Source: Gammaproteobacteria bacterium (GTDB taxonomy: Bacteria; Pseudomonadota; Gammaproteobacteria; UBA6429; Thiohalophilaceae). Taken from it: 32,906 nt of DNA. Where the stretch lies: positions 1 through 32,906 of the forward strand of contig JAUWUS010000018.1 of assembly GCA_030617815.1 (NCBI GenBank), given 5' to 3'. A program made the position numbers and the translations under genes. Every line of letters starts with the position of its first letter. Within the stretch, counting starts at the first letter, position 1. Positions 5,059 through 32,906 of this stretch are shown one piece after another. Under the pieces are notes generated by a model. That model had not been told where the DNA came from and made no database searches. It worked only from the letters and a program-made list of their open reading frames with translations.

Positions 5059-5063
5059 TAAAC

Positions 5064-5561: not shown

Positions 5562-5598
5562 TTCGCGCTCCGAATATTTAGTTTATAAACAAATACAT

Positions 5599-6153: not shown

Positions 6154-6222
6154 AATAACTCTCTCGTGAGATTTTGAACCTTGAGTATAAAAAAAATATC
6201 GACTAAAGAAAATATCAGGCAT

Positions 6223-6253: not shown

Positions 6254-6282
6254 GAATATTACTGGTTTATGCAGACTTATGC

Positions 6283-7521: not shown

Positions 7522-7552
7522 TTGAAAAGAATTTTATTAAAGGAGTAGAAAA

Positions 7553-8242
7553 ATGAAAGAGACATTATCAGGACGTGTTGGTCGTTTAATCAGTGGTAGC
7601 TTTAATGCCCTAGTTGATGCCGTTGAAAATGCAGCACCAGAGATTGTCATGGAAGAAGCTATTCGTGAGATTGATGGAGTGATTGACGAAGTTCGCACTG
7701 AGTTAGGACGTGTTGTGGCAAATAAACATATGTCGAATACACGTTTAATGGAAGAAAATAATAAGTATGAAGAGTTGTCTGAAAATATTGAATTGGCAAT
7801 TAAAAAAGATCGTGATGATTTAGCTGAAGCAGCTGTTTCCAAACAATTGGATATTGAAGTTCAAATTCCAATTTTGGAAAATAATATTTCAGAGTGTAGT
7901 GTTAAAGAAAAAGAACTCGAAAGTTATATACTTGCCTTGCAAGCTAAAAAACGCGAAATGAAAGGTGAGTTAGATCTCTATCGCGAATCAACTAAAGAAG
8001 CCGCAGCCGTTAGTGGTAATGGGCCAGTGACAAGTGCAAGTACAAAAGAAAGTGTAAATGCAAAAATTGAGAAAGCGGAGTCTGCTTTTGATCGCGTGCT
8101 TGAAAAAGCAACAGGTCTGGCTTCTGTGCAACGCAGCACAGATGCAAAAACAGCCGCACAAGTTGCTGAACTACAAGAGATGGCGCATAAGAACCGTGTA
8201 AATGAGCGTCTGCAAAGTATTAAAAGCAAAATGAAAGGATAA
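7553..8242 (+). CDS. pspA: PspA/IM30-family membrane-stress protein
   Basis: 229 residues, almost entirely long coiled-coil helices. It opens with an amphipathic stretch (MKETLSGRVGRLISGSFNAL) and the PspA-type segment APEIVMEEAIREIDGVIDEVR. Members are ESCRT-III-like proteins that coat and repair the cytoplasmic membrane. The sequence resembles the YjfJ branch rather than classical sigma-54-dependent PspA, and no pspF, pspB or pspC is present. GGAG precedes the ATG; five bases separate its stop from yqiJ, whose ribosome-binding site (AAAGGA) lies inside its last codons. Family confidence is high; the precise paralogue is uncertain. Confidence 0.9.
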   Translation: MKETLSGRVGRLISGSFNALVDAVENAAPEIVMEEAIREIDGVIDEVRTELGRVVANKHMSNTRLMEENNKYEELSENIELAIKKDRDDLAEAAVSKQLDIEVQIPILENNISECSVKEKELESYILALQAKKREMKGELDLYRESTKEAAAVSGNGPVTSASTKESVNAKIEKAESAFDRVLEKATGLASVQRSTDAKTAAQVAELQEMAHKNRVNERLQSIKSKMKG

Positions 8243-8247
8243 GCACA

Positions 8248-8919
8248 ATGCTTGAGTTTATATCAGCTCCTCAAAATTTGGCATTTAGTGTTGCACTAGT
8301 GTTGATGATGGGTATTGCTCTTTTAGAAGGCATAACCGCTATATTTGGTTTTGCTCTTTCTGGAGTGCTGGACTCACTTTTGCCTGATTTTGAGTTTGAC
8401 ATGGAATTGGATGTTGAAGCGCATTCTCCTCATGCTCTTTCACGACTTTTAGCTTGGCTACGTTTTGGTAAGGTACCAGTACTTATATTGTTAGTCATTT
8501 TTTTAACTGGGTTTGGGCTGATTGGATTAGGTATTCAGTCGTTCACACAAAATACAATGGGATTTCTCTGGCCTGGTTATATTGCTAGCATTCCCGCTGT
8601 TTTTTTAACGTTACCGATCGTGCGCGTATTAGGCGGAGCAATAGGTTTTATTATGCCTAAGGACGAGACGGAAGCTGTATCGCAGGATAGTTTTATTGGT
8701 CGTATCGCTAATATTACATTAGGAACTGCAAAAGTAGGTAGCCCTGCAGAAGCAAAATTAAAAGATCAATATGGCACGGCACATTACATTATGGTTGAAC
8801 CGGATAATGCTAATGATGAGTTCGACAAGACTACCCCCGTCTTGGTTATAAAAAAAGCAGGTCACGTTTTTAAAGTGATCAAAAATGAAAACCAAAATCT
8901 TGTTGATTCGAAAGAATAA
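8248..8919 (+). CDS. yqiJ: YqiJ-like inner-membrane NfeD/OB-fold protein
   Basis: 223 residues with three or four membrane segments (about 12-40, 73-98 and 107-130), then a cytosolic beta-rich OB-fold-like domain (about 145-212: IGRIANITLGTAKVGSPAEAKL...HYIMVEPD). This is the YqiJ arrangement, a relative of NfeD proteins that partner flotillins. It is immediately followed by its expected partner yqiK, and its start overlaps the region of PspA's stop, so translation is probably coupled. Role: anchoring or organising flotillin assemblies in the inner membrane, by family knowledge. Confidence 0.9.
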   Translation: MLEFISAPQNLAFSVALVLMMGIALLEGITAIFGFALSGVLDSLLPDFEFDMELDVEAHSPHALSRLLAWLRFGKVPVLILLVIFLTGFGLIGLGIQSFTQNTMGFLWPGYIASIPAVFLTLPIVRVLGGAIGFIMPKDETEAVSQDSFIGRIANITLGTAKVGSPAEAKLKDQYGTAHYIMVEPDNANDEFDKTTPVLVIKKAGHVFKVIKNENQNLVDSKE

Positions 8920-8948
8920 AGGACAACAAATTTACTAGGAGTAGCGAG

Positions 8949-10697
8949 ATGTATTATATAGATATAACAAACATTTTAACCATATCAGGAATAATTCTAG
9001 TTGCCATATTGGTCATTGGGATGATCTTTGCGCGTCTTTATCAACGTGCTTCAAAAGAAGTATCTTTTGTTCGAACAGGTTTTGGAGGGCAAAAAGTTAT
9101 TATGAATGGCGGCGCTTTAGTCTTTCCCGTGTTACATGAAATTATTCCTGTCAATATGAATACCTTGCGTCTTGAAGTGCGCCGTGCAAACGAGCAGGCA
9201 CTTATCACACGTGATCGTATGCGTGTAGACGTTATCGCTGAATTTTATGTTCGCGTCAAACCAGAGGCAGATTCGATTGCTTTTGCTGCACAAACACTTG
9301 GTTTGAAAACAATGAATCCAACCGAACTCAAACAATTGGTTGAAGGTAAGTTTGTTGATTCATTACGTGCTGTTGCAGCAGAAATGGCAATGACCGAACT
9401 GCATGAAAAGCGTGTTGATTTTGTACAAAAAGTACAACAGGTTGTATCTGAAGATTTATTGAAAAATGGTCTTGAACTTGAAACTGTTTCTTTAACAGGA
9501 TTAGATCAAACGAGTAAAGAGTTTTTCAATCCAGATAATGCATTTGATGCCGAGGGTTTAACTTTATTAACTAAAGAAATTGAACTCCGTCGTAAAATTC
9601 GTAACGATATAGAACAAGAAACCAATGTTGAGATTGCAAATAAAGATCTGGAAGCTCAAAGACAAAAACTTGAAATTCAACGTGAAGATGAATATGCACG
9701 TTTAGCACAAGAACGTGAAGTTGAAGTTCGCCGAGCTTCTCAAGCTGCGGAAATTGCAAGAGAACGTGCAGAAAAAAATAGAGAAGCTCAAGAAGCAGAG
9801 ATTGCAGCGAAAAAAGATGTTGATATGGCGCAAATTTTAGCGGAACGTGAAATTGAATCAGAGCGTATTGAAAAGGAACGTTTAATTAGAGAAAAAGATA
9901 TTCAACGTGAGAAGGCCATTGAAACAGCGGATATTGATCGTGGCAAAGCGATTGAAATTGCAGATCAAGATAAGTCCATTGCCGTTGCTGAAAAATCTAA
10001 AGAGAAATCTCATGCTCAAGCTGAAGCTGATGCTGCGAGACAAATAGCAGTGAAGGAGTCAGAACAAGTACAAACAGTAAAAGAAACAGCAATTGCAGAA
10101 CGTGAAAAGGATATCGAACTTGTTAAAGCGCGTGAAGAAGCTGAAAAACAAGCCATCTCGATTACTGTTGCTGCGGAAGCAGAAAAAATGGCGGCAGAAG
10201 ATCAAGCTGAAGCGGTCACTATTCTTGCTAATGCAGAATCAGATAAACAACGTATTGAAGCTCAAGGTGATGCTGAAGCAACTAAGCTACGAGCCGAAGC
10301 TGATGAAAAACGTTTCGCTGTTGAAGCAGAAGGTAAACGTGCGATTAACGAGGCTCGAAACATTCTTAATAATGAACAGATCGATTTAGAAGTTCGTGTG
10401 AAATTATTGAATGAATTAGCGAATATTGTTAGTGAAAGCGTTAAACCAATGGAACAGATTGATGATATTAAAATCATTCAAATTGAAGGTTTAAATGGTG
10501 CTGTTGCCGGAGCTGCTGGAGATGGTGGTAGTTCAAATGGTAATGGCAACCTTGCAGATCAGGTTGTTAATAGTGCCTTGCGATATAGAGGACAAGCACC
10601 ATTAATAGATAGTTTACTTAAAGAGGTTGGTTTAGATGCGGGTGATATCAATGGTTTAACTAAACCGTTTACCCCATCAGAAAATCCAAAGAGTTAA
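8949..10697 (+). CDS. yqiK: YqiK-type flotillin (Band 7/SPFH)
   Basis: 582 residues. One N-terminal membrane segment (about 10-29) is followed by an SPFH/Band 7 domain (about 35-210: SFVRTGFGGQKVIMNGGALVFPVLHE...). Next comes a long Glu/Ala/Arg/Lys-rich coiled coil (about 215-480) and a glycine/serine linker before a short conserved C-terminal helix (ADQVVNSALRYRGQAPLIDSLLKE). Flotillins oligomerise into membrane scaffolds. AGGAG precedes the ATG 29 bases after yqiJ. A strong terminator follows, closing the main transcript. Confidence 0.95.
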   Translation: MYYIDITNILTISGIILVAILVIGMIFARLYQRASKEVSFVRTGFGGQKVIMNGGALVFPVLHEIIPVNMNTLRLEVRRANEQALITRDRMRVDVIAEFYVRVKPEADSIAFAAQTLGLKTMNPTELKQLVEGKFVDSLRAVAAEMAMTELHEKRVDFVQKVQQVVSEDLLKNGLELETVSLTGLDQTSKEFFNPDNAFDAEGLTLLTKEIELRRKIRNDIEQETNVEIANKDLEAQRQKLEIQREDEYARLAQEREVEVRRASQAAEIARERAEKNREAQEAEIAAKKDVDMAQILAEREIESERIEKERLIREKDIQREKAIETADIDRGKAIEIADQDKSIAVAEKSKEKSHAQAEADAARQIAVKESEQVQTVKETAIAEREKDIELVKAREEAEKQAISITVAAEAEKMAAEDQAEAVTILANAESDKQRIEAQGDAEATKLRAEADEKRFAVEAEGKRAINEARNILNNEQIDLEVRVKLLNELANIVSESVKPMEQIDDIKIIQIEGLNGAVAGAAGDGGSSNGNGNLADQVVNSALRYRGQAPLIDSLLKEVGLDAGDINGLTKPFTPSENPKS

Positions 10698-10711
10698 GCT
10701 TCATTTAAGTT

Positions 10712-10741
10712 AGAGTCCTATCTTTGATAGGACTCTTTTCT
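10712..10741 (+). terminator. Rho-independent terminator after yqiK
   Basis: An 11-bp perfect stem AGAGTCCTATC (10712-10722) / GATAGGACTCT (10726-10736), TTT loop, and T-rich tail. Confidence 0.92.
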
Positions 10742-10757
10742 TTTTATAGGTTGTGTT

Positions 10758-11312
10758 ATGTCAATGAACTGTCCAAGCTGTAAACAAGGAAAGCTAAAAC
10801 CTTCCTTTATTGATGATTTATTCCGCTGCAATACTTGTAACAACTGTGGAGGAAATTGGTTTTATCTTACTGATTACTTACATTGGTTAGGTAAAGGAAA
10901 ATCAGTGCTGATTTCTGAAACTTCATTCGAGAGGGATGACCACGATACAAAAAATGCAATGTTATGTCCGATAACTGGGCAAATCATGTTGAAATACCGA
11001 ATATCAAATAAGTCGACGCATCGTTTAGATCTAAGTCCTTCGTTATCTGCTATATGGCTAGATAAAGGTGAGTGGGAGTTAATTAAAGAAGAAGGGCTGT
11101 CACGTCAACTCAATCAGATCTTTACGGAACCATGGCAAAGAAATGTTAAATCTGATCAAGCAAAGGAAACCTTGGAAGCAATGTATCTAGAAGAATTTGG
11201 TGAGTCTGATTACACTAAATTGAAAGAGATACGAATTTGGCTTGAAAATAATGATAAAAAGCAAGCTATGATGGCATATTTACTTTCTGACAATCCTTAC
11301 ACTACTCAGTAA
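10758..11312 (+). CDS. TFIIB-type zinc-ribbon protein
   Basis: 184 residues. The N-terminus CPSC...CNTCNNCGGNW (C5, C8, C24, C27, C30) is a zf-TFIIB-type ribbon. A second degenerate copy follows (about 75-110: MLCPITGQIMLKYRI...SAIWLDKGEWELIK), where the typical IWLDxGEWELL ending is kept but most cysteines are lost. The C-terminal part is helical. It starts just after the yqiK terminator, so read-through or a weak promoter must serve it. Proteins of this type often accompany PspA/flotillin clusters. Function unknown; a zinc-dependent chaperone or adaptor role is inference. Confidence 0.8.
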   Translation: MSMNCPSCKQGKLKPSFIDDLFRCNTCNNCGGNWFYLTDYLHWLGKGKSVLISETSFERDDHDTKNAMLCPITGQIMLKYRISNKSTHRLDLSPSLSAIWLDKGEWELIKEEGLSRQLNQIFTEPWQRNVKSDQAKETLEAMYLEEFGESDYTKLKEIRIWLENNDKKQAMMAYLLSDNPYTTQ

Positions 11313-11632
11313 TAAAGATATAGTTTATGTTTGGTTATCTTTAAATAACTTAACTCAATTAATGCTTCCACTTTCTTCTTTAGCTCACTTTATGGTTCCA
11401 TGTTTATAAATTGCTTTTGCAATATTTGGCTGATTGGTGATGTATTAGGCTATTAATTGTTCAGTTTATGCTTCCAATCTCTTTCCCCATATCGGTAAAG
11501 TCACATTATAAAGTAGTATTTGACATAAGCAGGCTCTAATTTTCTATTATTAGTGCAAATTGTGTCCTAACCCTGATTTTCGATAAGCTTTATGACTTAG
11601 TGCATGAACTTGATGAAATTAACCCTTAACGT
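11313..11632. other. Gene-free interval, possibly decayed sequence
   Basis: 320 AT-rich bases between convergent genes. No ORF with a ribosome-binding site, no clear terminator stem and no convincing repeat. TATGGTTCC (11391-11399) and TATGCTTCC (11467-11475) are weakly similar words. It may be remnants of a lost gene; nothing firmer can be said. Confidence 0.3.
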
Positions 11633-12178
11633 TTACCAGAAACGTGGCCGTCCAGTATCAACATGAATGAAATTGGATTTTGGATAATAACCTACCCCAC
11701 CTGCACGCATGTTCAGGGCAGCCTGACGCAAATGTTTAAGTTCAACTCCCGGTAGACGAATATCGATTGCCTTACCCCGCATATGCAGGCTACGTTTAGC
11801 AACACCCTTACTGCCACTTCGTAATTTGGCATTACTTTTCGGTGAACGATAACCTGATATCACCTGGAAGGTTCCGGGTTTCTCTACTTGTTGCTGTAAG
11901 GTATAGAGTAAATCATAAAGATTACGATCCATTGGCATCACTTCTTTACTACGATGATCGCGTAATACGTGATCAATTGCGGCAATTTCATCAGCAATAT
12001 AATTACCATCCGCCCAATAGGTTGCCGATAATTTTTCACCTGTATGAATATTCTGAAAACGTAAAATCCGCTCCCCTTCTTTCGGTTCGAGCAGGATCGT
12101 ACGTGCAAAAGCCGCTGGTGCCATCGTCATTATGGCACTACCTGTTGCTAATTTTAAAAAGTCACGTCGTGTAGTCAT
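11633..12178 (-). CDS. mepK: MepK-like (DUF882/YcbK) Tat-exported murein endopeptidase
   Basis: 181 residues from the ATG at 12176-12178, preferred over an upstream GTG because GGTGGAG sits at the right distance. It has a twin-arginine signal (TTRRDFLKLATGSAIM). The catalytic domain shows the M15-like zinc motifs: SGYRSPKSN, SLHMRGKAIDI (H and D ligands) and FIHVDTGRPRFW (third ligand). MepK-type enzymes cleave mDAP-mDAP 3-3 crosslinks, the bonds made by L,D-transpeptidases. The LdtD-like gene lies directly upstream on the same strand (126-base gap), the same pairing as ycbB-ycbK in E. coli. High confidence in family. Confidence 0.92.
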   Translation of the reverse strand: MTTRRDFLKLATGSAIMTMAPAAFARTILLEPKEGERILRFQNIHTGEKLSATYWADGNYIADEIAAIDHVLRDHRSKEVMPMDRNLYDLLYTLQQQVEKPGTFQVISGYRSPKSNAKLRSGSKGVAKRSLHMRGKAIDIRLPGVELKHLRQAALNMRAGGVGYYPKSNFIHVDTGRPRFW

Positions 12179-14047: not shown

Positions 14048-14788
14048 ATGGCCATCTTATGGCAAAAAACAATAAAAAATACTCATTATGAAATACGCAC
14101 TGCTGGTCAGACGTTGCGCTTATATACCGATGGCGTTTTTCATAGCCAGTTTAATTCTGCTCATGCAGTAACCGGTGGTGTTTGGGATGTTTTGATGTTG
14201 CCTGCTTTGTTTTACCCTGAAAATACGCTGCAACGTGTATTAGTGTTAGGTGTTGGGGGTGGTGCGGTCATTCATTTATTGCAACGTTATATTAAACCGG
14301 CTGAAATAATCGGGGTTGAGTTAAACCCCGTGCATATTATGCTGGCAAAACGTTATTTTGGAATAACAAAAAAACTCGCCAAGTTGGTGCAGGCAGATGC
14401 AGTAAAGTGGCTGGATAATTATTCAGGTCCTCCTTTTGATATGATAATTGATGATTTATTTGGCGAGCAGGACGGTGAGCCACTTCGTGCGGTTAAAGCA
14501 AATAAACTCTGGCTTGAAAAACTGAATACTCATTTAAGTCCGGAAGGTATTTTGGTGATGAATTTTATTAGTCGTAATGATTTAAAAAATTGCGCGGCGA
14601 TATCATATAAAAAAATATCAGCTTTATTTGTTTCATCATTTCAATTCACCTTAACGCATTATGATAATGCTGTTGGTGCATTTTTAAAAAAACAGGCAAC
14701 TAGTCAAATATTACGGCAGCATATTAATGCAATCGATGAACTTAAAAAAAGCAAAAAACTTGATTTTCATGTTCGTAAATTAAAATAA
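14048..14788 (+). CDS. Spermidine-synthase-fold SAM-binding protein
   Basis: 246 residues. The Rossmann glycine loop VLVLGVGGGAV (64-74), the acidic end of strand 2 (IIGVELNPVH, about 87-97) and a DDLFGEQDGEP segment after strand 4 are those of the spermidine synthase/methyltransferase superfamily. It lacks the N-terminal membrane part of the 31306 gene and much of the canonical SpeE N-terminal beta-domain. No speD is seen. It may be a methyltransferase or a degenerate aminopropyltransferase. It diverges from ldtD and is followed by the 24-codon ORF and an oxygenase gene, probably in one operon. Confidence 0.75.
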   Translation: MAILWQKTIKNTHYEIRTAGQTLRLYTDGVFHSQFNSAHAVTGGVWDVLMLPALFYPENTLQRVLVLGVGGGAVIHLLQRYIKPAEIIGVELNPVHIMLAKRYFGITKKLAKLVQADAVKWLDNYSGPPFDMIIDDLFGEQDGEPLRAVKANKLWLEKLNTHLSPEGILVMNFISRNDLKNCAAISYKKISALFVSSFQFTLTHYDNAVGAFLKKQATSQILRQHINAIDELKKSKKLDFHVRKLK

Positions 14789-21866: not shown

Positions 21867-22100
21867 TTGATAGACTTAGTTTTTGCTGCTGCGTTTTCAG
21901 CTCTCTTAGCAGGAATCTTCTATTTTCTAACACTCTCCCAGAGCAGCTTGATACCGTTTACGCCCGGTGACACTTTGACCGCAGCAAAGATTCTATTTTT
22001 TATTTATTTCCTTGTCATAACATACACTTCAGCTAATCATTTTATTAGATTCAAAAGATCCCTTACTGCTATTGATAGCAATAACTATGAGGAAGAATGA
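21867..22100 (+). CDS. Small two-TM protein with uncertain start, possibly frameshifted
   Basis: From a TTG at 21867 the reading frame gives 77 residues with two membrane helices (about 4-22 and 38-58) and an acidic tail. Its TGA overlaps the next ATG as ATGA, which supports translation. However, no ribosome-binding site precedes the TTG. The open frame reaches back only to a stop at 21831. Just upstream, another frame (21772-21870) encodes a charged helix (KKHEKKLDEHREAKIIYE) that would naturally continue into this protein after a -1 shift near 21861-21868. Either a non-ATG start or a frameshift is involved. Confidence 0.5.
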   Translation: MIDLVFAAAFSALLAGIFYFLTLSQSSLIPFTPGDTLTAAKILFFIYFLVITYTSANHFIRFKRSLTAIDSNNYEEE

Positions 22101-24688
22101 TTATGTTCGATAACATCAAACTAGCCATGGAAAGAGAGGCTGTCAGAGATTCAAAACATGTAATCAACAACTTAAAAATAAGCAATTACCAAACAATAGC
22201 GCACCACCTTTCCTCACTAATAACATCATTTATAGCATTCTTGCTAACCCTATATGCCGTCGTTTCCTATAGACAATCTCAAGGAAACTTTCCAACTATT
22301 ACATTAGTCACTTTATTTCTTGCTTTTGTTTTAATTTTTCTACATGAGAATAAGAAAAGGACCCCCGAGTATATAAACAAGTTCTTATCAATATTTATGA
22401 GGATAAGATTTATCTGGTTAAAACACTGGCATGCCGACTATCTCGCAAAATATTATTGGATTAGCTTAGGAGCATTAACCTTTGTCCTAACCTTTTTACT
22501 GGCTGCACATTCTCTAGGTGCTGAGGGATGGGTAGATAAGTTGGTTATGCAAGATGAAAGTTACTCATCCTCCATAAACATGCTGATTACTTTAGCCTCG
22601 GGTCTTTTGGCCACTCAGATTGCACTTTTCAGCTTTATGATGCAACAAGTACTTGGGAAATATTCTGGGGTTGTAGCACAAACAGTGGTTAGTCATAAGG
22701 CTATTAAAGTGCTAATAGTATACCCACTGCTAGGTTTATTAATTCCGTATTCATTAAGTTATTACGGCTGCCCAATTTCCATTAAAGACTATATTTTTCC
22801 AATCACAGGAGGGTTACTTTTATTTGGCTTGTTTATTTCAGTCATGCTAGCAAAAACTGGTCTTAGGGAAAGTCTTGCAATTAGATATGTTGGCATAGCT
22901 GACGCAATGCGAATCAAGAAGGCTATGCCACCCCCAATTGATAACAAATCAATTTCTTCACGCTACCTCTGGCTACCATTAAATTATCTTGGACTAGATT
23001 TCAGAGATCGAGATAGATACCAGATCATGAGTGCCCCTAAGACTGGATCAAACATCGCTACAGAATCTCTAGGCGCACTACTAGGCGTAGCAAACAAAGC
23101 CATAATAGAGGGGCAACATGATGTTTTTGTAGCCAGTCTATCTTCCATCGAACGGATTATGGAAGGCTATGCGGAATGCCGCAGTCTATATTTTGGACAT
23201 GAAGATCATGTTTTTACATATCTAAATTATCAATTTGCTGCACTAATCGAATCAGCTTCCAAAGCACCAAACCAGTACCTTATTTCAAATCTAACTGAAC
23301 ATATTGGACGTATATCCAAACTCACTTATTGCATTGGAAATTATCCTAAAAGTGAGGAATTCTCTACCCCATTGATAACTCATTCTAATAATTTTTCCAC
23401 CTCGCTATGGATGGGACTACTTTTTCAGAGCTTTGAAAACACCCATGAATTAACAAGAAGCACTGCTGCGCATGAGTCGATAATACAAATGACAGAGCTT
23501 GCTATCATATCTATTGATCATAGTGACTCTGATGCAATTACTCTATCCTATCTAGAAACAATTAAAAAAGTCTATGCGCTTTGCCTGCCAAAATTGGCAG
23601 ACGCATACCATGAAGACCTAGCTGGGATGTGCTTTATAAAGCTAATAAGAACCCTCATATACATATCACAGAATCGCAGCAGACTAACTGGAACACATCA
23701 AGATCCATTTGAGGAAACACTAAAATTGCTATCTCAAATGACGATGTTGTATTTGGCTATATCTCCTTCACCTTCAATGAATCTCAACGACCCAATTAAC
23801 GCTTTTTTGACTAAAACAGAAGAAGAAAAATACTGTATTCAGGAAGTTTTCTTTGTCACTTTATTCAGAGAGATAAAGAACAGAAGGGACTATGCAACCG
23901 CAATATCAGATTCAAAAGAATTGATAGAAACAAATACCAAACTTGGAAAGACTGCTATATCAAAAGAAGTATATTTATCAGGCTATTATTTAGCCGCATT
24001 ATTTGAAATGGCCTATATGATACTGCGAGGTCTACCTGCCCATTTCATGGAATATGACGCTATTGAAAACGAGGAAATGGCTGCATTTCGCCAGCTCAAC
24101 GAGCAAGAAGACAGTCAACGTGATTTAACAATCCTTGTTTTTGAAAATCTGAGAGAAATATATGTGGAATTCTATAAATCATCAAGTGTCATGAGTGACT
24201 GGCAGCAATCGGTATTTTCAATACTTGGAGTTGCCATTATTCGCTACTCGAACACTAAAGATAATTATTTAAAGGAGCAGATAGAGGATACCGGTTGGTT
24301 GCTATATGCATTAGTAGCTGCTGATTATTACGAGATGAAAAGACCTCATTATGATAGCAAGAAGTATTTACAACTATTAGGAGCATGGCTAGACCATTTT
24401 AAAATCTGTAGTGAACTCAGCCAAGAAATATGTGAATTAATTGCTAAAACATACAGACCAAGGGGAATGTATGGTGGAAGCTCTGGCGGAAATTATGGCC
24501 ACTATAACTATCCTACTATTAGTCATGGAGATTTTTACCTATATCCTCTTAGAAATATTCGACACCACAAAATTATGCCTAAAAACAAAATGGAAGAGTT
24601 TTTAAGCTGGGAAAAACGTTTAATGCAAAGAGACTCCCTACTAAAATTCTACCAGCGCATCATGTGTAAAGTGAAAGTGAAATCATGA
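22097..24688 (+). CDS. Large six-TM membrane protein of unknown function
   Basis: 863 residues (or 861 from the second ATG at 22103; GAGGAAGA at 22088-22095 suits the second better). Six hydrophobic segments: about 40-58, 65-82, 119-138, 161-183, 203-222 and 233-252. A ~600-residue cytosolic, all-helical C-terminal half without recognised motifs follows, ending in a Gly/Tyr-rich patch (GGSSGGNYGHYNY). Arginine is often AGA/AGG and ATA/CTA codons are common, unlike the CGT-rich housekeeping genes nearby, pointing to transfer. It overlaps the preceding small gene. No enzymatic motif is seen; it may be a membrane effector or sensor of the island. Not recognised. Confidence 0.75.
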   Translation: MIMFDNIKLAMEREAVRDSKHVINNLKISNYQTIAHHLSSLITSFIAFLLTLYAVVSYRQSQGNFPTITLVTLFLAFVLIFLHENKKRTPEYINKFLSIFMRIRFIWLKHWHADYLAKYYWISLGALTFVLTFLLAAHSLGAEGWVDKLVMQDESYSSSINMLITLASGLLATQIALFSFMMQQVLGKYSGVVAQTVVSHKAIKVLIVYPLLGLLIPYSLSYYGCPISIKDYIFPITGGLLLFGLFISVMLAKTGLRESLAIRYVGIADAMRIKKAMPPPIDNKSISSRYLWLPLNYLGLDFRDRDRYQIMSAPKTGSNIATESLGALLGVANKAIIEGQHDVFVASLSSIERIMEGYAECRSLYFGHEDHVFTYLNYQFAALIESASKAPNQYLISNLTEHIGRISKLTYCIGNYPKSEEFSTPLITHSNNFSTSLWMGLLFQSFENTHELTRSTAAHESIIQMTELAIISIDHSDSDAITLSYLETIKKVYALCLPKLADAYHEDLAGMCFIKLIRTLIYISQNRSRLTGTHQDPFEETLKLLSQMTMLYLAISPSPSMNLNDPINAFLTKTEEEKYCIQEVFFVTLFREIKNRRDYATAISDSKELIETNTKLGKTAISKEVYLSGYYLAALFEMAYMILRGLPAHFMEYDAIENEEMAAFRQLNEQEDSQRDLTILVFENLREIYVEFYKSSSVMSDWQQSVFSILGVAIIRYSNTKDNYLKEQIEDTGWLLYALVAADYYEMKRPHYDSKKYLQLLGAWLDHFKICSELSQEICELIAKTYRPRGMYGGSSGGNYGHYNYPTISHGDFYLYPLRNIRHHKIMPKNKMEEFLSWEKRLMQRDSLLKFYQRIMCKVKVKS

Positions 24689-24946: not shown

Positions 24947-25858
24947 CTATTTTATCCGTATATATGATTGTGCTGTTTCAGGATCACGATGCCCACTGTA
25001 TTGCATCGTCTCATAAATCGTTTTACCGCTATTAACCGATTCAGTAATGAATCCTGCACGTAGCGAGTGAGCTCCATAAAGCGTTTCATCTAAGCCAATT
25101 AACTTAATTCGTTTCTTCACGATTTTATAAATACTCGTTCCTGTAATAGAAGGGTAGAGTGTTAAGTCGGCTTTAATCCCTCTAAAGATATTTCCTTCAC
25201 GTATTCCACTTTTAAGTAACCATTGTTTTAAAGCTAACGCCGAATCATCTGAAATGCTAACACTAAACCCCACGGCTCCTTGGTCCGTCTTGCTCTTAGC
25301 TAATGTTATAATGTAACCGTCTTTTTTTTTGGTGATGTCATTCATTTTAAGATTTGCAATTTCACTTCTACGTCTCCCTCCTGAACAAAATGCTACAAGC
25401 AATAATGCTCTGTCACGTACACCGATAAGCGTGTTATCACAGGTCAATAACATCTTATCGAGAATGTCGCGAGTAATGGCCGCTACCTGTCGAGGACGTT
25501 CAATACGCGCACTCTTAGCTCGTTTTAAAAGTAACTTCACCTGGTCATTGGTAGTAGGGGAGGCGAACCCCGCTTCTTTATGTCCGACGCTGACACTTGC
25601 TAAGTAACGTCTGAGTGTACTTACCTTTAATCGTCGTGGACTGTCTTCACTCAAGTGATATAAACAAAACTGTATCACCACATCAGGTGTTACAGGATAA
25701 CTTTGTTTTAAGGAAAGATGTTCTGATAGCCAAGCGAAGAAGTACTTGATATCTCTATCGTATGCTCGCCTTGAACTTGGAGCGCAGCCAGCTTCAATCC
25801 ATTTATCAAAGTCCGCCTGCCAGTCGGGGAGGGTGTTGGTTGTGTTGTTAGTTTTCAT
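24947..25858 (-). CDS. Tyrosine recombinase/integrase
   Basis: 303 residues. The N-terminal SAM-like core-binding domain (about 12-115) is followed by a catalytic domain with R163 (GGRRRSEIANL), a beta-hairpin lysine (AKSKTDQ), H264-x-x-R267 (HSLRAGF), H290 (SGH) and nucleophile Y299 nine residues later. All key residues are present, so it should be active. It lacks the extra insertion of integron IntI between the hairpin and HxxR. A copy of the island's inverted repeat lies 43-78 bases upstream of its start, and a CGAATAGATTCG dyad (25860-25871) abuts the ATG in place of a ribosome-binding site. Probably an island integrase or an invertase. Confidence 0.92.
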   Translation of the reverse strand: MKTNNTTNTLPDWQADFDKWIEAGCAPSSRRAYDRDIKYFFAWLSEHLSLKQSYPVTPDVVIQFCLYHLSEDSPRRLKVSTLRRYLASVSVGHKEAGFASPTTNDQVKLLLKRAKSARIERPRQVAAITRDILDKMLLTCDNTLIGVRDRALLLVAFCSGGRRRSEIANLKMNDITKKKDGYIITLAKSKTDQGAVGFSVSISDDSALALKQWLLKSGIREGNIFRGIKADLTLYPSITGTSIYKIVKKRIKLIGLDETLYGAHSLRAGFITESVNSGKTIYETMQYSGHRDPETAQSYIRIK

Positions 25859-26337: not shown

Positions 26338-26934
26338 ATGAATAATAATGAAACAAAGATGCCCGCATATATTATTGGCATAATTACTGCGGTTATTGCC
26401 ATTATCGTTACATGGATCTTAATCCCCGCATTTGGTCCTATTGTAGGTATACTCATTGGCTTGATTGTCGCCAGTGTTGTGTACATGGTACTAAATTATT
26501 TCAATCAAACAGAAGAACCTTCTGAAATAATAGCGGAACCCGCAAGTCCATCGGATACCGGTATTGAATCATTGCTTAATATAAACATCGCATTGCGCAA
26601 AGAAATCATCCCAGAAGAAATTCGTACCCTGTATGAGTCGATTATTGATCAGTTAATAGATGTACTACCAAAAGTGAACAGTGAAGTTTCAGGTGGTGAA
26701 TTGGCGTGGGTGATTAATCGTATGGCAACTGAGTACCTTCCGGAAAAATCTATAAGGCCATATCTTTCGATGGATGATGCTCAACGTCATGCTGAAGATA
26801 CCATTACTTCAGTAAAAGAAAGTATTGCTGGAATGCAATCAGAGCTATCCGAAGTACAAGACATACTTTCATCGCATAAAACGGATGAATTTAATAACAA
26901 AGCTAAATTCTTAAAAACCAGATTTAAAATGTAA
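26338..26934 (+). CDS. Two-TM helical protein preceding TelA (XpaC-like?)
   Basis: 198 residues. Two adjacent membrane segments (about 9-30 and 33-53) are followed by a linker rich in Pro/Glu and a helical cytosolic domain (about 78-198) with the motif ATEYLPEKSIRPYLSM and a coiled coil at the end (SVKESIAGMQSELSEVQDILSS). AGGA at 26322-26325 is rather far from the ATG. In Firmicutes, telA-like genes are often preceded by xpaC, a membrane-plus-helical protein of similar layout; the resemblance here is positional and architectural and not proven. The TelA gene follows 12 bases later. Confidence 0.6.
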   Translation: MNNNETKMPAYIIGIITAVIAIIVTWILIPAFGPIVGILIGLIVASVVYMVLNYFNQTEEPSEIIAEPASPSDTGIESLLNINIALRKEIIPEEIRTLYESIIDQLIDVLPKVNSEVSGGELAWVINRMATEYLPEKSIRPYLSMDDAQRHAEDTITSVKESIAGMQSELSEVQDILSSHKTDEFNNKAKFLKTRFKM

Positions 26935-26946
26935 TTGGGAGTCGAC

Positions 26947-28086
26947 ATGAGTGATACTAAAAAAGCCCCTAAATGGGCAAAAGATATAGATATTTCATCA
27001 ATGAAAGATAAGTCGTTGTCATTGATTGCGAACGTTAAAGAAAAAGCCGGCCCAGCATTAATGCGTACAATTGATGGTATCGGTGAGGGGTCACAAAAAA
27101 GCATGAGGTCAGCTAATGATCTTATGTCGAAAAGTGTTGATTCCTTATTAAAAGGTCTGGATGGTAAATCACCAACAGGTGAAAAGTTACTTGAGTTACG
27201 TACTGCAATGGATGATCTTAATCCTCATTCACTGAGTAACGCTTGGTACTTTAACTGGATGCCGAAAGGACTTAAACGTAAAGCGGTATCGCGTTTTATT
27301 CATAAATATCAACCGATGCAAAATCATGTGACTCAAATTCTTGATGGATTACGTGCCGGTAAAGATGATTTACTCGAAACCAGTATTGACCTTGAACACC
27401 AGTACGATGAAATCATGGGCGCGCAAAAACAGGTCCAATCTGATATCTATGTCGGAGAACATTTCATAACAGAAGTTGAAAAACTTGAATCTGAAGTCGA
27501 CGCAACAGATACCCAGGAGGTAACAAAACTGGCTTCAGTAAAAAATAAAGCCGCTCGACGTATTCGTGATCTTCGCACGATGGAGCAAGCGGCCGTTCAG
27601 TTCTTTATTAGTATTGATCAAACCGTCCAGACCAACGAATTATTAAGTGAGCAGATTGATAGCGCACTTACTGTTGGCCCGATGGTTATGACCAATGCTT
27701 TACGTATTCAAGCGGCACTTGCTAAACAAGATACGGTTAAAAATGCGGTACAAAGTTTCCAAGATGGCTTGGGCGATATGATGGCGCAAAATGCCACTGC
27801 CGTGAACAAAGCCGCGCAAGAAGTTGGAGACATGTATAACAACCCAGTCATTGCTCTTGAAAAAATGGAAGAAGGCTTTGATCAGTTAATGCAAGCGGTA
27901 CAAACAGCTAATGAAACAATGGCTAATAGTACATTAAAAGCACGTGAAGCAAGTGCGCGTTTAGCCGATATGACTGCAGAATTATCTCCGGTAGCTGAAG
28001 GTTTACATGATGCAAGAACTAGTAATAAAGATAACGATGATGTCATTGAAGGTGAAGTCGTTAATGTAGAGGAAGATAGCAAATGA
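26947..28086 (+). CDS. telA: TelA-family toxic-anion-resistance protein
   Basis: 379 residues from the ATG at 26947 (GGGAG upstream). The TelA signature is clear in the middle: LNPHSLSNAWYFNWMPKG, then a long helical part with EVTKLASVKNKAARRIRDL and the conserved FISIDQTVQTNELLSEQI...VMTNALRIQAALAKQ. No membrane segment; predicted to be cytosolic and coiled. TelA proteins are linked to tellurite and envelope stress, but the biochemical role is unclear. Its stop overlaps the next start as ATGA. Confidence 0.93.
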   Translation: MSDTKKAPKWAKDIDISSMKDKSLSLIANVKEKAGPALMRTIDGIGEGSQKSMRSANDLMSKSVDSLLKGLDGKSPTGEKLLELRTAMDDLNPHSLSNAWYFNWMPKGLKRKAVSRFIHKYQPMQNHVTQILDGLRAGKDDLLETSIDLEHQYDEIMGAQKQVQSDIYVGEHFITEVEKLESEVDATDTQEVTKLASVKNKAARRIRDLRTMEQAAVQFFISIDQTVQTNELLSEQIDSALTVGPMVMTNALRIQAALAKQDTVKNAVQSFQDGLGDMMAQNATAVNKAAQEVGDMYNNPVIALEKMEEGFDQLMQAVQTANETMANSTLKAREASARLADMTAELSPVAEGLHDARTSNKDNDDVIEGEVVNVEEDSK

Positions 28087-28715
28087 TGAATGTGCAAGAA
28101 AGGCTGACAGCCATTCGCGGCTTAAATCCTGCACCTGTTGCTGAGAGAAAATCATTCGATATACGAAACCTTAAAAAAGGCGGTTATGTCGATTGGGATG
28201 ATCAAACATGGCTCGTTCAAAATGTTTACCTTTATCTTGATGTGAAGTGGAAAGACTTCTCAAAACGTAAGAAGGATTACTGGGTAACGGAACTTGAACT
28301 GTATTCATTGAATACCGGTAAGGTGTGCTTTGTGGAATGGGAATATGACGATGAACTTGAAGTCAGTCAAACCGATTCAATCGTGCAATTACGTGATATT
28401 CAATATGACGGTCGATCCATTAAACACCGAGATCTAGAAGAAATTGCCGAAGAAGAAGAAGGTGAAGTGATTGTTGATGGTACGACATACTTCTATGTTG
28501 AAGATGATACCTGGGCGGGACTTTTCATGAAAGCAGGCGGTTCTAAAGAAGGGACTCCGATGCGTGCATATGAATTTGCCTCACCAAAAGATACATATCT
28601 CACCATTGAAACATGGCATGAAGATGATGATGACAGACCTGAACGAGAAGCGTTTGTAAGTCATGAAATTAAAGGTAATCTATTTGAAGTACTGCAAACC
28701 TCTGCAGTGAAATAA
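28083..28715 (+). CDS. DUF4178 protein
   Basis: 210 residues, very acidic, no signal or membrane segment. Two beta-rich repeats resembling DUF4178 are seen (KGGYVDWDDQTWLVQNVYLYLD and GEVIVDGTTYFYVEDDTWAGLF), each with 'I/V-G/D-x-T-Y/W-x-V'-type strands. DUF4178 proteins occur with PspA, DUF350 and aminopropyltransferase genes. ATG overlaps the TelA stop (two consecutive ATGs at 28083 and 28086). Role unknown; probably a cytosolic adaptor of the membrane complex. Confidence 0.8.
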   Translation: MMNVQERLTAIRGLNPAPVAERKSFDIRNLKKGGYVDWDDQTWLVQNVYLYLDVKWKDFSKRKKDYWVTELELYSLNTGKVCFVEWEYDDELEVSQTDSIVQLRDIQYDGRSIKHRDLEEIAEEEEGEVIVDGTTYFYVEDDTWAGLFMKAGGSKEGTPMRAYEFASPKDTYLTIETWHEDDDDRPEREAFVSHEIKGNLFEVLQTSAVK

Positions 28716-28747
28716 ATCTTCAACATGAAACCATTACGGAGGAAATT

Positions 28748-30406
28748 TTGAAATATAATAATAATCGTTTCATCGGTTTCTTCTTTATTGTTTTTTTAAC
28801 TGCGTTTCTTAGCGGTTGTAGTGGTCTTCCCGATAACCTGATGCATGAATTTAAACTCATGCCTAAACGATTAACGGATAATGAAGCCCTAATAAAAACA
28901 CAAAAAGAAGCTTTTGATAATCTCCCAAGTCATTCTGAATGGAAATTTTTCAGCCCTTACTTAGAATCCGAAGAATGGCTCGATAAATTTAACGTCGCTA
29001 AAGATGAACTCAGTAAAGCAAAAAAACTTTATGACACTCAAATTGAGCCCATGGCAGACAGAAATAAGCCAGAAGAAACCCAAGCTTTTACCAAGCTCAT
29101 TGAACAATTCAATAAGCATATGTATGCCTCAAGTGGGGCAGCATATTATGCTGAGAAACGTATCGATTTTTTAGTCACCACCCGTAATACGGCAGATGAG
29201 AAGTACGAAAAGGCGAGTCGGCAATACGGAAATAACTTATCTATTCAACGCCTATTCACATCCAAGGCGAATGCAGCAGCGAAAAAATATCCGAATAAAA
29301 AAGACGATTTAACAAAGCGTGTATCGGGGCTTGATTCATTAGTAAAAGAAAATAGTGATTCTTATATAACGCTTAAAACGGAATATCATAAAAATACGTC
29401 TACCAATTATGCTCGCTTTGGTGATGCTGCTGTCGCATTAAACAAAACAACACATAAAGTTGGTAAATATGAAGATGAACACAGTGGGAAAGTGGATGAA
29501 CTTTATCGCAGTTACGTCAAGGTGCTCGCGGATCAACGTGTTGACTATTACGTTGTGATTGGGCGTGCAACATGGTGTGAAGGCGAATTCTGTGGTTCAG
29601 GTAATGAATCACGTTTTCCTGCAGTAAAAGTTGACGCTAAAATCTTTGAATACTTTGATACGTTAACGCTTAGTTCGATTGCTAAATACCGTCAGTCATG
29701 GGGTGGAAGTGATCAATTTACGTTGAAAATTCCACAAGACAAATGGAACGCGTTAAGACTCAATTATAAAAGTGGAAAATCTAGCGGCCATGATTATGGT
29801 GAGTATTGGGTTGACAGCACGTATACCAAAACTTACCACAAATATATTGAAATCGTGAATGACAAAATGACCGAGAAAGATTGGCAGCCTGTTAGTGATG
29901 ATTATTTTTGGAAAAGCTATGAAAATTTAGGAATGGCAATTGTTACAAAACCCTATGGGAATTATGAAGAAGATAGTCTAAGAGATGCGCAACCTGTCGG
30001 CATGGCCACCATGGCAAAACCGGTTATACGTAATGGCGTTGCAACTGGAGCTAATCAATACGGTGAATGGCGACATTCAAACGGTAATTCATTCTGGCAC
30101 TACTACGGTATGTACCGACTCTTTGGTGGTCTCGTGGGTCCTCGTCGGTATTCTTATAATGATTGGAATAGTTACTCTGGCCGTAAAAGAGGATATGCCT
30201 ATTATGGCCGTAACGATCAATACGGCACCTATGGTAGCAGCACCTATTCAAGTACCCGTTATCGTAACAGCAGCTTTGCCACTCGAAATCCGGGTGAAGT
30301 CCGAAGCGCAACTAGCGGAAAATCACGATCATCACGTTCAAACCCCTCTGTTCGAGGCGCAGGATCTTCATCAAGAAATCGTGGCCCTTCAGGTGGTGGT
30401 AAGTAA
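28748..30406 (+). CDS. Lipoprotein with Gly/Ser/Arg-rich tail, TTG start
   Basis: 552 residues from a TTG at 28748 with a strong GGAGGA at 28738-28743; there is no alternative ATG nearby. Signal peptide with lipobox LSGC (C24), followed by SG. The middle (about 60-240) is helical and Lys/Glu-rich; about 250-420 contains a beta-rich domain (DQRVDYYVVIGRATWCEGEFCGSG). The last 100 residues are low-complexity Tyr, Gly, Ser and Arg. Acylated at C24, so it would be anchored on the inner or outer membrane facing the periplasm. Similar low-complexity-tailed lipoproteins accompany DUF350 genes. Function unknown. Confidence 0.8.
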   Translation: MKYNNNRFIGFFFIVFLTAFLSGCSGLPDNLMHEFKLMPKRLTDNEALIKTQKEAFDNLPSHSEWKFFSPYLESEEWLDKFNVAKDELSKAKKLYDTQIEPMADRNKPEETQAFTKLIEQFNKHMYASSGAAYYAEKRIDFLVTTRNTADEKYEKASRQYGNNLSIQRLFTSKANAAAKKYPNKKDDLTKRVSGLDSLVKENSDSYITLKTEYHKNTSTNYARFGDAAVALNKTTHKVGKYEDEHSGKVDELYRSYVKVLADQRVDYYVVIGRATWCEGEFCGSGNESRFPAVKVDAKIFEYFDTLTLSSIAKYRQSWGGSDQFTLKIPQDKWNALRLNYKSGKSSGHDYGEYWVDSTYTKTYHKYIEIVNDKMTEKDWQPVSDDYFWKSYENLGMAIVTKPYGNYEEDSLRDAQPVGMATMAKPVIRNGVATGANQYGEWRHSNGNSFWHYYGMYRLFGGLVGPRRYSYNDWNSYSGRKRGYAYYGRNDQYGTYGSSTYSSTRYRNSSFATRNPGEVRSATSGKSRSSRSNPSVRGAGSSSRNRGPSGGGK

Positions 30407-30433
30407 CAGAATAATAATCAAGGATAAAATATT

Positions 30434-31285
30434 ATGAATATTGAACAATATATGTATTACCTCCTATATGCCTTAGTCTATCTCGTGCTCGCGACGGCTA
30501 TGAAGTACATTTTAAACATCCGTTCATCTCAACATTATGATGCAGATGATGTGATTGCTGACGGGAACATAGCAGTAGGTCTTCGTCGCTCGGGTGCACA
30601 ACTCGGTTTAGCGATTGCCATGTTAGGCGTGATGTCTGGTGCAAATAATCCTGACCTCATGAAAGATATGATCGACACCTTTACCTATGGTCTGGTCGCT
30701 ATTGGTTTTATGGTAACATCACTATTCTTCACAGATAAAGCGCTCTTGCCTAAAGTGAATAACACCGAAGAACTTAAACGCGGTAACGTTGCGATTGGGA
30801 TGGTTGAGTTCGGCACGTTAGTAATGACGGGTATTCTAGCTTACGCCAGTATCAAAGGTGATGACGGAGGTATTCTTTCATCGGTTGTCTATTTTGTTGC
30901 AGGCCAGGTCACGATGGTTGTCTTAGTACTTTTTTATGAAAAAGTACTTGCGCGAAAAATTAATCCTGTTGCATGTGTGCTTGAAGGAAATCTTTCTGCA
31001 GGTGTGTACTTATCAGGCAAGATCATTGCTTACGGTCTAATCCTTCAAAGTGCAATCGTGGGTAACAACAATGCATCTGTTACATCCGATGCCGTGATTG
31101 AATATATAGTAGCCGCATTTGCAGGTATGATCTTACTTTATATCTTTGAAATCTTAATTGATTTGTTGATTATTACTTCAACAAAGGTCAGTGATATTAT
31201 TATTAAAGATCAACTTGTCGCAGCCATGCAACTTTCAATTACTAAAATTGGGATGGCATTACTTTTAGGTGTTGCAATCTTATAA
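30434..31285 (+). CDS. Tandem DUF350 membrane protein
   Basis: 283 residues, about eight membrane helices. Four internal repeats share the pattern 'GN-x-A-x-G': GNIAVGLRRSG (44), GNVAIGMVEFG (117), GNLSAGVYLSG (185) and the degenerate DQLVAAMQLSI (259), spaced 68-74 residues. This equals two DUF350 units fused; E. coli YjfL, by comparison, has one unit of about 130 residues. AAGGA precedes the ATG. Likely an inner-membrane component of the stress complex; mechanism unknown. Confidence 0.9.
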   Translation: MNIEQYMYYLLYALVYLVLATAMKYILNIRSSQHYDADDVIADGNIAVGLRRSGAQLGLAIAMLGVMSGANNPDLMKDMIDTFTYGLVAIGFMVTSLFFTDKALLPKVNNTEELKRGNVAIGMVEFGTLVMTGILAYASIKGDDGGILSSVVYFVAGQVTMVVLVLFYEKVLARKINPVACVLEGNLSAGVYLSGKIIAYGLILQSAIVGNNNASVTSDAVIEYIVAAFAGMILLYIFEILIDLLIITSTKVSDIIIKDQLVAAMQLSITKIGMALLLGVAIL

Positions 31286-31305
31286 TTCTATAAGATTATA
31301 CCAGC

Positions 31306-32906
31306 ATGAAAACTCCAAGACTTCTTCCTGTACTGTTGGCCTTTTGCATGTTCTCAACCGGCGCGAGCGGGTTGGTAAATGAATATGTACTGGCCACAAT
31401 AACAACCTACATCTTAGGTAACTCAATAGAACAATTTTCTATTGTGATTGCCTCAATGATGTTAATGATGGGGATTTCCGGCTTTGTTCAAAGTCGGATG
31501 TCTGATAATAATTTAATCTATAAATTTATCGGTGTTGAAGTTGTGATGGCTGTGCTTGGTGGTTTTGCGCCACTGGCAATATACGGAGCCTTTGCTTATT
31601 TTGAATATAACTTTGCCGTTGTACATTATTTCTTTGTGCTCAGTGTGGGTTTTCTTATTGGTTTTGAAATTCCTATCGTCATGCGAATCATTAACCAACA
31701 GAAAATTAGCTTAAAAACAAATCTCGCCATCGTTTACGCAATGGATTATGTTGGAGCATTTGTCGGTGCGATTATATGGGTAAAAGTACTGCTTAAATTT
31801 TATCCTCTTACGGAAATAAGCTTTATTGTGGCTGGGTTCAATTTTGCTATTGCACTCATTACTGTCACATACTTTATTTTTACGGGCATTATTAAACATC
31901 GTGTATATACTGCAATTATTATGCTAATGACGGTTGCGGTATTACTCACCGGCTATCTCAATAACCGCGATATCAGCGATCTTTTTGAGCAACATTTTTA
32001 TGATGATCCAATAATTCACAAAACTACCACTAAGTATCAACACATCGTATTAACCCAAAATAAACAACTAGGGGATATCCGTCTTTACATTAATGGTAAT
32101 ACGCAGTTTTCATCTCTTGATGAGAAACGCTATCACGATTTATTAGTGCATCCTGTTATGTCAATAGCTTACATGCCAGAGCATGCCTTAATACTGGGAG
32201 GTGGAGATGGTCTGGCGTTACGTGAACTGCTTAAGTACAAAAATCTTAAATCCATCACTCTCGTGGATCTTGATCCCGATATGATTAAACTGGCATCTGA
32301 AAACCCTCATTTAAGAAAGCTCAATAAAGATGCGTTTCAAGATGCACGATTACATGTTCGCCCACCAGGTAATGTAAATTCCGTTAACGTAAAAGGGGTA
32401 TATTTAGAATCCGAAGATTCGTTAACAAAAAAAATGCAATCTGAATGGGTTGCGACGGTTGATGTGTACAGTATCGATGCCGATCAATTTATTCGCACTA
32501 AAAACGATCAACGTTGGGATGTCGTAATTATAGATTTCCCCGATCCTTCATCCGTTGAGTTAAGTAAACTCTACAGTAAACAATTTTACCGTAAATTACG
32601 CAGCCATTTATCCAGTAATGCCTTTGTCTCAATTCAATCAACATCTCCGTATCACTCAAAAGAATCCTTTTTGGCAATTGGTAATACATTAAAGTCAGCA
32701 GGATTTAATATTTTACCTTATCGTCAAAATATCCCTTCTTTTGGTGATTGGGGGTTTCATCTTGCATGGACGTCGGGTATCAGTGAAAAGGCCATTAAGA
32801 ATAATCTTAAAACCGTCGAAGAGTTTACCGTCAACACAGACTATGTCACACCTGAATTAATGCTGGCTTCATTTGCTTTTGGCAAAGGTGAACTGACCTC
32901 TAAAAC
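31306..32906 (+). CDS. Membrane-fused aminopropyltransferase (SpeE-like), partial
   Basis: 533 codons from ATG 31306 run to the window end without a stop, so the C-terminus is missing. About seven membrane segments (residues 5-215) precede a spermidine-synthase domain: KYQHIVLTQ, LYINGNTQFSSLDEKRYHD, ILGGGDGLALRELLKY, TLVDLDPDM and the catalytic-loop region IIDFPDPSSVELSKLYSKQFYR, and GDWGFHLAW. An insertion of roughly 30 residues lies between DARLHV and YSIDADQF. This is the arrangement of DUF350-linked aminopropyltransferases. No speD is nearby, so the aminopropyl donor source and acceptor are unknown. Starts 20 bases after the DUF350 stop; ribosome-binding site weak. Confidence 0.88.
   Translation, partial: MKTPRLLPVLLAFCMFSTGASGLVNEYVLATITTYILGNSIEQFSIVIASMMLMMGISGFVQSRMSDNNLIYKFIGVEVVMAVLGGFAPLAIYGAFAYFEYNFAVVHYFFVLSVGFLIGFEIPIVMRIINQQKISLKTNLAIVYAMDYVGAFVGAIIWVKVLLKFYPLTEISFIVAGFNFAIALITVTYFIFTGIIKHRVYTAIIMLMTVAVLLTGYLNNRDISDLFEQHFYDDPIIHKTTTKYQHIVLTQNKQLGDIRLYINGNTQFSSLDEKRYHDLLVHPVMSIAYMPEHALILGGGDGLALRELLKYKNLKSITLVDLDPDMIKLASENPHLRKLNKDAFQDARLHVRPPGNVNSVNVKGVYLESEDSLTKKMQSEWVATVDVYSIDADQFIRTKNDQRWDVVIIDFPDPSSVELSKLYSKQFYRKLRSHLSSNAFVSIQSTSPYHSKESFLAIGNTLKSAGFNILPYRQNIPSFGDWGFHLAWTSGISEKAIKNNLKTVEEFTVNTDYVTPELMLASFAFGKGELTSK

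What the first reader, a model, noticed from the sequence alone, without database searches (positions are those of the whole stretch)
26338..32906. Compact TelA-DUF4178-lipoprotein-tandem DUF350-aminopropyltransferase operon
Five intact genes and one cut gene are packed with gaps of 33 bases or less and one ATGA overlap, joining a TelA-type protein to DUF350 and a membrane-fused SpeE. It spans cytosol (TelA, DUF4178), inner membrane (DUF350, SpeE fusion) and periplasm (lipoprotein). Related families co-occur in psp/yjf-type envelope-stress clusters, but the TelA-led order with an XpaC-like first gene is unusual in my knowledge. A polyamine acting on membrane or polymer modification is one hypothesis.
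Basis: partly seen in the sequence, partly recalled or inferred. Interest (0 to 1): 0.7.

Follow-up and report, generated by a model that had tools for sequence, protein, structure and literature searches.

The report
TelA-led envelope operon with polyamine enzymes
This is a rare but conserved seven-gene bacterial operon in which a TelA protein pair sits exactly where a known family of cell-envelope stress operons carries the membrane-repair protein PspA, next to two enzymes that make and use an aminopropyl donor; it suggests that the long-puzzling TelA proteins do a PspA-like job at the membrane.

Summary
In detail: six tightly packed same-strand genes (26338-32906), the last cut by the contig end. 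Another contig of the same genome completes it: SpeE runs on across a 9-base overlap and is followed by a class 1b AdoMet decarboxylase (SpeD), so the operon has seven genes. It is not a one-off. I found eight further copies, seven in gammaproteobacterial genomes and one far more diverged (TelA 28% identical) on Alteromonas mediterranea megaplasmid pAMCP48-600. The cassette TelAs form one clade (99/95 support) apart from ordinary XpaC-TelA genes. The lipoprotein / 8TM DUF350 / 7TM-SpeE / DUF4178 core is that of an operon Ravi et al. 2024 described with a DUF2170 (CesT/Tir)-PspA pair. Here gene 1-TelA takes that position: the eight copies that show TelA lack PspA/DUF2170, and ten PspA-type copies lack TelA. 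Best reading: a PSP-like envelope system in which a membrane-anchored TelA scaffold replaces PspA and works with a dedicated aminopropyl-transfer branch. That gene 1 is XpaC-like is not demonstrated. Acceptor, complex and stress role are inferred. New variant of a known kind.

The parts
26338..26934 (+). gene 1: membrane-anchored helical protein (198 aa, two N-terminal TM helices here, one in L116/L117; conserved motif INRMATEYLPxKSIxPYL)
   Evidence: No Pfam family; homologues immediately upstream of TelA in 7 loci; topology
26947..28086 (+). TelA (PF05816), cassette-specific clade
   Evidence: 137 bits, cut-off 30; tree 99/95
28083..28715 (+). DUF4178 protein, predicted cytosolic
   Evidence: 39 bits, cut-off 25
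28748..30406 (+). large lipoprotein (lipobox LSGC at residues 21-24); helical N-terminal part; C-terminal domain shared with PspA-type cassette lipoproteins
30434..31285 (+). tandem DUF350 (8 TM) inner membrane protein
   Evidence: 133.6 bits, two stretches; 8 hydrophobic segments
31306..32906 (+). 7TM-SpeE aminopropyltransferase, cut by the contig end; the last ~24 codons and then SpeD lie on contig G000:C106 (SpeD at about 65851-66324, minus strand)
   Evidence: NF002956 561 bits, cut-off 472; contig join; motifs

Best explanation
The operon is a PSP-like envelope maintenance system in which the usual DUF2170 (CesT/Tir)-PspA pair has been displaced by a gene 1-TelA pair. SpeD decarboxylates SAM in the cytosol, and the 7TM-SpeE uses that aminopropyl donor at the membrane on an envelope-related acceptor (a polyamine destined for the envelope, or a lipid or lipoprotein amine). 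Gene 1 anchors TelA at the inner leaflet, where TelA does what PspA does in the sister operons: it coats or senses stressed membrane and organises the DUF350/SpeE complex; the lipoprotein links this to the periplasm or outer membrane. SHOWN: gene content, its conservation in nine loci, replacement at the same position, intact catalytic motifs, a separate housekeeping SpeD-SpeE pair in some carriers. INFERRED: complex formation, acceptor, stress role, TelA as scaffold.
For: Same gene set in nine loci spanning 28-95% TelA identity, incl. a plasmid copy with SpeE-SpeD moved to the front. Parallel order: L041 SpeD-SpeE-DUF2170-PspA-DUF4178like-RHH-channel-Lipo-DUF350 against L117 SpeE-SpeD-gene1-TelA-DUF4178-Lipo-DUF350; the pairs exclude each other in 8 TelA-type and 10 PspA-type copies. 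Shared lipoprotein C-terminal domain, HHalign 99.1%. SpeD keeps Ser/His(+5)/Cys(+20) and SpeE keeps GGGDG, YH and D-x-P-D-P. G402 and G403 carry an additional SpeD-SpeE pair elsewhere. TelA is envelope-stress linked elsewhere: CesSR regulon and growth defect of the xpaC-telA deletion in Lactococcus (PMC3139573); Listeria telA mutant more nisin-sensitive (cited in PMC12791056). Ravi et al. propose the same link of PspA and aminopropylation.
Against: No sequence relation between TelA and PspA; a shared position does not prove a shared role. The PspA-type DUF4178-like protein is only weakly DUF4178. G000, G404, G406 and G407 show no strong housekeeping SpeE, so in them the cassette pair might simply make spermidine. 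No experimental data for any cassette gene; MAG contigs may be incomplete.
Confidence: 0.5

Rival explanations
1. Plain polyamine biosynthesis: SpeD-SpeE make spermidine or a longer polyamine for the cell or its surface, DUF350 and the lipoprotein help move it, and TelA/gene 1 only regulate or stabilise.
For: Motifs fit aminopropyl transfer to amines; every carrier has an ornithine/arginine-decarboxylase family gene; four carriers show no strong housekeeping SpeE. P. aeruginosa SpeD2-SpeE2 (PA4773-4774) make surface-linked polyamines (PMC11107197 and its references).
Against: Other carriers have a complete separate SpeD-SpeE pair; membrane fusion and constant companions TelA, DUF350 and lipoprotein are not needed for bulk spermidine.
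Confidence: 0.27
2. Outward-facing modifier: the SpeE domain lies in the periplasm and aminopropylates exported proteins or lipids; DUF350 or the 7TM domain passes decarboxylated SAM across the membrane.
For: Positive-inside charge pattern in four diverse SpeEs gives seven helices with N-in, C-out; a fungal 7TM spermidine-synthase-like enzyme resides in the ER and modifies secreted proteins (PMC10349129).
Against: Prediction is a simple hydropathy/charge count; an even helix number would reverse it; no carrier for decarboxylated SAM is known.
Confidence: 0.13
3. A metal-oxyanion (tellurite) resistance or phage-defence island acquired horizontally.
For: TelA family name; a tyrosine integrase directly upstream (24947-25858); patchy distribution and a plasmid copy.
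Against: No defence family beyond a weak fold-level SpeE-mad2 match, no phage homologue, and no integrase noted beside the other copies in the ORFs read.
Confidence: 0.05

Closest known systems
DUF2170 (CesT/Tir)-PspA operon with 7TM-spermidine synthase, 8TM DUF350, lipoprotein and DUF4178 (Ravi et al. 2024, second group, PMC11237479)
   Same: 7TM-SpeE, 8TM DUF350, lipoprotein C-terminal domain, DUF4178 position, often SpeD
   Different: Gene 1-TelA instead of DUF2170-PspA; no RHH regulator; larger lipoprotein (about 550 against about 320 aa); K+ channel only in the G417 copy
XpaC-TelA stress pair (B. subtilis yaaN-xpaC, Lactococcus llmg_1115-1116, common in Gammaproteobacteria before an SPFH-like gene)
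   Same: TelA preceded by a membrane-anchored helical protein
   Different: Cassette TelA is a separate clade; gene 1 is 170-200 aa and not demonstrably XpaC; different downstream genes
E. coli yjfIJKLMC
   Same: DUF350, a lipoprotein, a spermidine-linked enzyme beside a PspA relative
   Different: Here TelA instead of PspA, SpeE/SpeD instead of the ATP-grasp peptide-spermidine ligase, 8TM instead of 4TM DUF350
Fungal NHMT (7TM + spermidine-synthase-like methyltransferase, PMC10349129)
   Same: 7TM domain fused to a spermidine-synthase-fold domain of about 558 aa in all
   Different: Ile in the GxG(D/E)G motif and uses SAM; here the acid is kept and SpeD is co-encoded; relation of the 7TM domains not tested

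Membership tests
Ravi group 2 PspA/SpeE operon | DUF2170 (CesT/Tir)-PspA dyad in the operon | tested here: not met
   No PspA or DUF2170 HMM hit inside any TelA-type copy; the window's PspA is a separate locus at 7553
Ravi group 2 PspA/SpeE operon | 7TM domain fused to spermidine synthase | tested here: met
Ravi group 2 PspA/SpeE operon | 8TM (tandem) DUF350 | tested here: met
Ravi group 2 PspA/SpeE operon | its lipoprotein | tested here: met
   C-terminal domain shared, HHalign 99.1%, P 2e-18; the N-terminal part differs
Ravi group 2 PspA/SpeE operon | DUF4178 protein | tested here: met
   window protein 39 bits over cut-off; direct profile match to the PspA-type proteins not significant
TelA (PF05816) | score above curated cut-off over most of the model | tested here: met
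   137.3 bits against 30, model 14-326 of 332
XpaC-TelA pair | upstream partner is XpaC (PF10112) | tested here: inconclusive
   No Pfam hit; HHalign 60%, unrelated controls under 1%
Class 1b AdoMet decarboxylase (SpeD) | pyruvoyl Ser, His at +5, Cys at +20 (class 1b spacing from own knowledge) | tested here: met
   all 7 cassette SpeDs; PF02675 118 bits for L081
Polyamine aminopropyltransferase | GxG(D/E)G and D-x-x-D-P motifs | tested here: met
   8 cassette SpeEs aligned
Polyamine aminopropyltransferase | transfers aminopropyl to a polyamine | not testable with these tools
   needs an enzyme assay
yjf operon (E. coli type) | ATP-grasp peptide-spermidine ligase and DUF2491 | tested here: not met
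   No such gene in the complete copies as read; DUF4178 protein has no profile match to YjfK

The most novel reading that the evidence does not exclude
TelA is a functional stand-in for PspA, a membrane-binding scaffold of the inner leaflet with no detectable sequence relation to PspA, and this cassette shows it by natural swap: gene 1-TelA replaces DUF2170-PspA in an otherwise conserved membrane aminopropylation machine.
Probability: 0.4. Interest if true: 0.78.

Novelty: new variant of a known kind. Interest (0 to 1): 0.57.

Why it matters
TelA has been tied to tellurite, nisin and envelope stress for decades without a mechanism. A conserved operon in which it takes PspA's place gives a concrete, testable hypothesis for what TelA does, and a defined set of partners (gene 1, DUF4178, DUF350, SpeE, SpeD, lipoprotein) to test it with. 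It also adds a recurrent case of a SpeD-SpeE pair tied to the envelope rather than to bulk spermidine.

Tried and rejected
Fold comparison: the TelA model (4 sequences, pLDDT 49) was too poor to use; the lipoprotein model (good only for its helical N-terminal part) had no PDB match better than E=0.1. XpaC membership of gene 1: inconclusive. TelA-PspA, gene 1-DUF2170 and lipoprotein-YgiB/YjfM homology: no signal. Solved relatives of TelA or of the lipoprotein: none. Defence system: only a weak fold-level hit. Phage copies: none. Hunts in 369 class and 398 phylum genomes found no further copy; relatives of G404 gave three. Promoter and terminator scans were at background. Literature: no paper in the held library was found that joins TelA with DUF350 or SpeE; the AdoMet decarboxylase linkage paper cited by Ravi et al. 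(Li et al. 2019) is not held, so it may mention this arrangement.

Full report
WHAT IS THERE. Six same-strand ORFs from 26338 to the window end are packed with gaps of 12, -4, 32, 27 and 20 bases. Families: TelA (PF05816, 137 bits), DUF4178 (39 bits), tandem DUF350 (134 bits) and a SpeE over the NCBIfam cut-off (561 against 472); gene 1 and the lipoprotein have no Pfam family. TelA more likely starts at the ATG at 26947 (preceded by GGGAG) than at the TTG at 26935. The window is the whole contig C68. A search of the own genome with the SpeD found beside a relative's cassette hit the end of contig C106. Its reverse complement overlaps the window end by 9 bases, continues SpeE with the same residues as L081 (TNCVNTVMFPCLLTNYTNYGWQVD, stop), then encodes a 44-codon ORF and SpeD. 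The operon is therefore gene1-telA-DUF4178-lipoprotein-DUF350-speE-speD. A 9-base overlap alone is weak evidence for the join; the in-frame completion of SpeE and the matching gene order in L081 carry it.

CONSERVATION. A scan of the species-genome collection with the DUF350 protein gave four relatives at 95, 87, 65 and 63% identity; all carry the cassette as far as their contigs reach (L082 starts inside DUF4178 and L084 inside TelA). Three more came from relatives of G404. A ninth, much more diverged copy (TelA 28% identical) is on Alteromonas mediterranea plasmid pAMCP48-600, in the order SpeE-SpeD-gene1-TelA-DUF4178-lipoprotein-DUF350. HMM scans confirm the content: SpeD lies next to SpeE in seven (the window by contig join), is not seen in L084, and in G417 a K+ channel follows SpeE instead. 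TelA is the most conserved part among the close copies: 77% to L083 against 41% for gene 1 and 48% for the lipoprotein. dN/dS for window-L081 is 0.05 for TelA, 0.05 DUF350, 0.06 SpeE, 0.09 DUF4178, 0.18 lipoprotein and 0.21 gene 1. A tree of eight cassette TelAs and 34 ordinary gammaproteobacterial TelAs puts the cassette ones on one side of a branch with 99/95 support; the Alteromonas branch is very long, so its place is less sure than that figure suggests.

RARITY. Of 58 relatives four, the window's genome included, have any match to the DUF350 protein, and the other three are only 25-34% identical. Among 369 class genomes 38, the window's included, have a TelA match; the ordinary ones mostly follow a gene of about 280 aa (XpaC by Pfam in the one tested, L059), and no other lies in the cassette. 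398 phylum genomes gave no further cassette TelA (next best 95 bits against 715). The full-length lipoprotein was found in no other class genome. The arrangement is rare and patchy.

WHAT IT IS RELATED TO. Ravi et al. 2024 (PMC11237479) describe an operon with a CesT/Tir-PspA dyad, spermidine synthase fused to 7TM, 8TM DUF350, a lipoprotein and DUF4178; TelA does not occur in their main text. I found ten such PspA-type copies (L041, L043, L086, L089-L092, L094-L096). They share with the window the DUF350 protein, in eight of ten the SpeE, and the C-terminal domain of the lipoprotein (HHalign 99.1%, P=2e-18). Their third protein matches DUF4178 only weakly, and the direct profile comparison is not significant. 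L041 (SpeD-SpeE-DUF2170-PspA-DUF4178like-RHH-channel-Lipo-DUF350) and L117 (SpeE-SpeD-gene1-TelA-DUF4178-Lipo-DUF350) show that gene 1-TelA stands where DUF2170-PspA stands. The two pairs exclude each other inside the cassette in the 8 TelA-type copies that show TelA and the 10 PspA-type copies. TelA and PspA are not detectably related, so this looks like displacement by an unrelated protein, not divergence.

MECHANISM. Shown: SpeD keeps Ser/His/Cys at the class 1b spacing and SpeE keeps GGGDG, YH and D-x-P-D-P, so a branch using decarboxylated SAM is likely intact. G402 and G403 have a second SpeD-SpeE pair elsewhere, so there the cassette pair is an extra, dedicated one; G000, G404, G406 and G407 show no strong housekeeping SpeE, which leaves room for ordinary polyamine synthesis. 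All eight genomes tested have an ornithine/arginine-decarboxylase family gene. Predicted topology (simple hydropathy and charge count): gene 1 is anchored with its helical domain inside; SpeE has seven helices with positive loops at even positions, which would put its catalytic domain outside. That is a testable oddity; a fungal 7TM spermidine-synthase-like enzyme that modifies secreted proteins in the ER is a working parallel (PMC10349129), but it lacks the acidic motif residue kept here. Inferred: gene 1 tethers TelA at the inner leaflet; TelA plays PspA's role; DUF350/SpeE carry out aminopropyl transfer on an envelope-related acceptor; the lipoprotein reports on it or receives it. Independent support for TelA as an envelope-stress factor: xpaC-telA is in the CesSR regulon of Lactococcus and its deletion partly impairs growth under membrane-protein load (PMC3139573); a Listeria telA mutant is more nisin-sensitive (cited in PMC12791056).

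VERDICT. A real, conserved, rare variant of a known class of envelope operon. The surprising part is the PspA-to-TelA swap, which makes TelA's function testable. Function and acceptor remain unproven, and the first gene's XpaC kinship is undecided.

Noticed in passing
window 6844-11312 (+): A separate PspA (7553-8242), YqiJ (8248-8919), flotillin/SPFH (8949-10697) cluster with a preceding unassigned ORF (6844-7521) lies about 15 kb upstream: the other PspA-operon type described by Ravi et al., so the same genome keeps PspA outside the cassette.
   Followed up: partly
window 24947-25858 (-): A tyrosine recombinase (Phage_integrase, 49 bits) sits directly upstream of the cassette; L081 has a different left flank (an inositol-monophosphatase-like gene) but the same large downstream membrane protein.
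   Followed up: partly
window 32898-32906 and G000:C106 end (L102): Contigs C68 and C106 share a 9-base end overlap and join inside speE; a 44-codon ORF lies between speE and speD there, but not in L081 or L083.
   Followed up: partly
window 22097-24688 (+): An 863-aa multi-pass membrane protein with no Pfam family.
   Followed up: no
window 14048-14788 (+): A soluble spermidine-synthase-fold / methyltransferase-like protein without TM domain (28 bits to PF01564).
   Followed up: no
L088 (G278) 3045-9005: A cassette with SpeD-lipoprotein-DUF350-SpeE-DUF4178-K+ channel and neither PspA nor TelA.
   Followed up: no
L085, L087 (G228, G092): K+ channel-lipoprotein-DUF350 without SpeE, SpeD, PspA or TelA hits, followed by an unidentified protein of about 480 aa.
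   Followed up: no
L116 (G417) 4313-12006: TelA-type copy in which a K+ channel (Ion_trans_2 + TrkA_N) follows SpeE instead of SpeD, and the lipoprotein has lost its lipobox cysteine and looks like a signal-anchored protein.
   Followed up: partly
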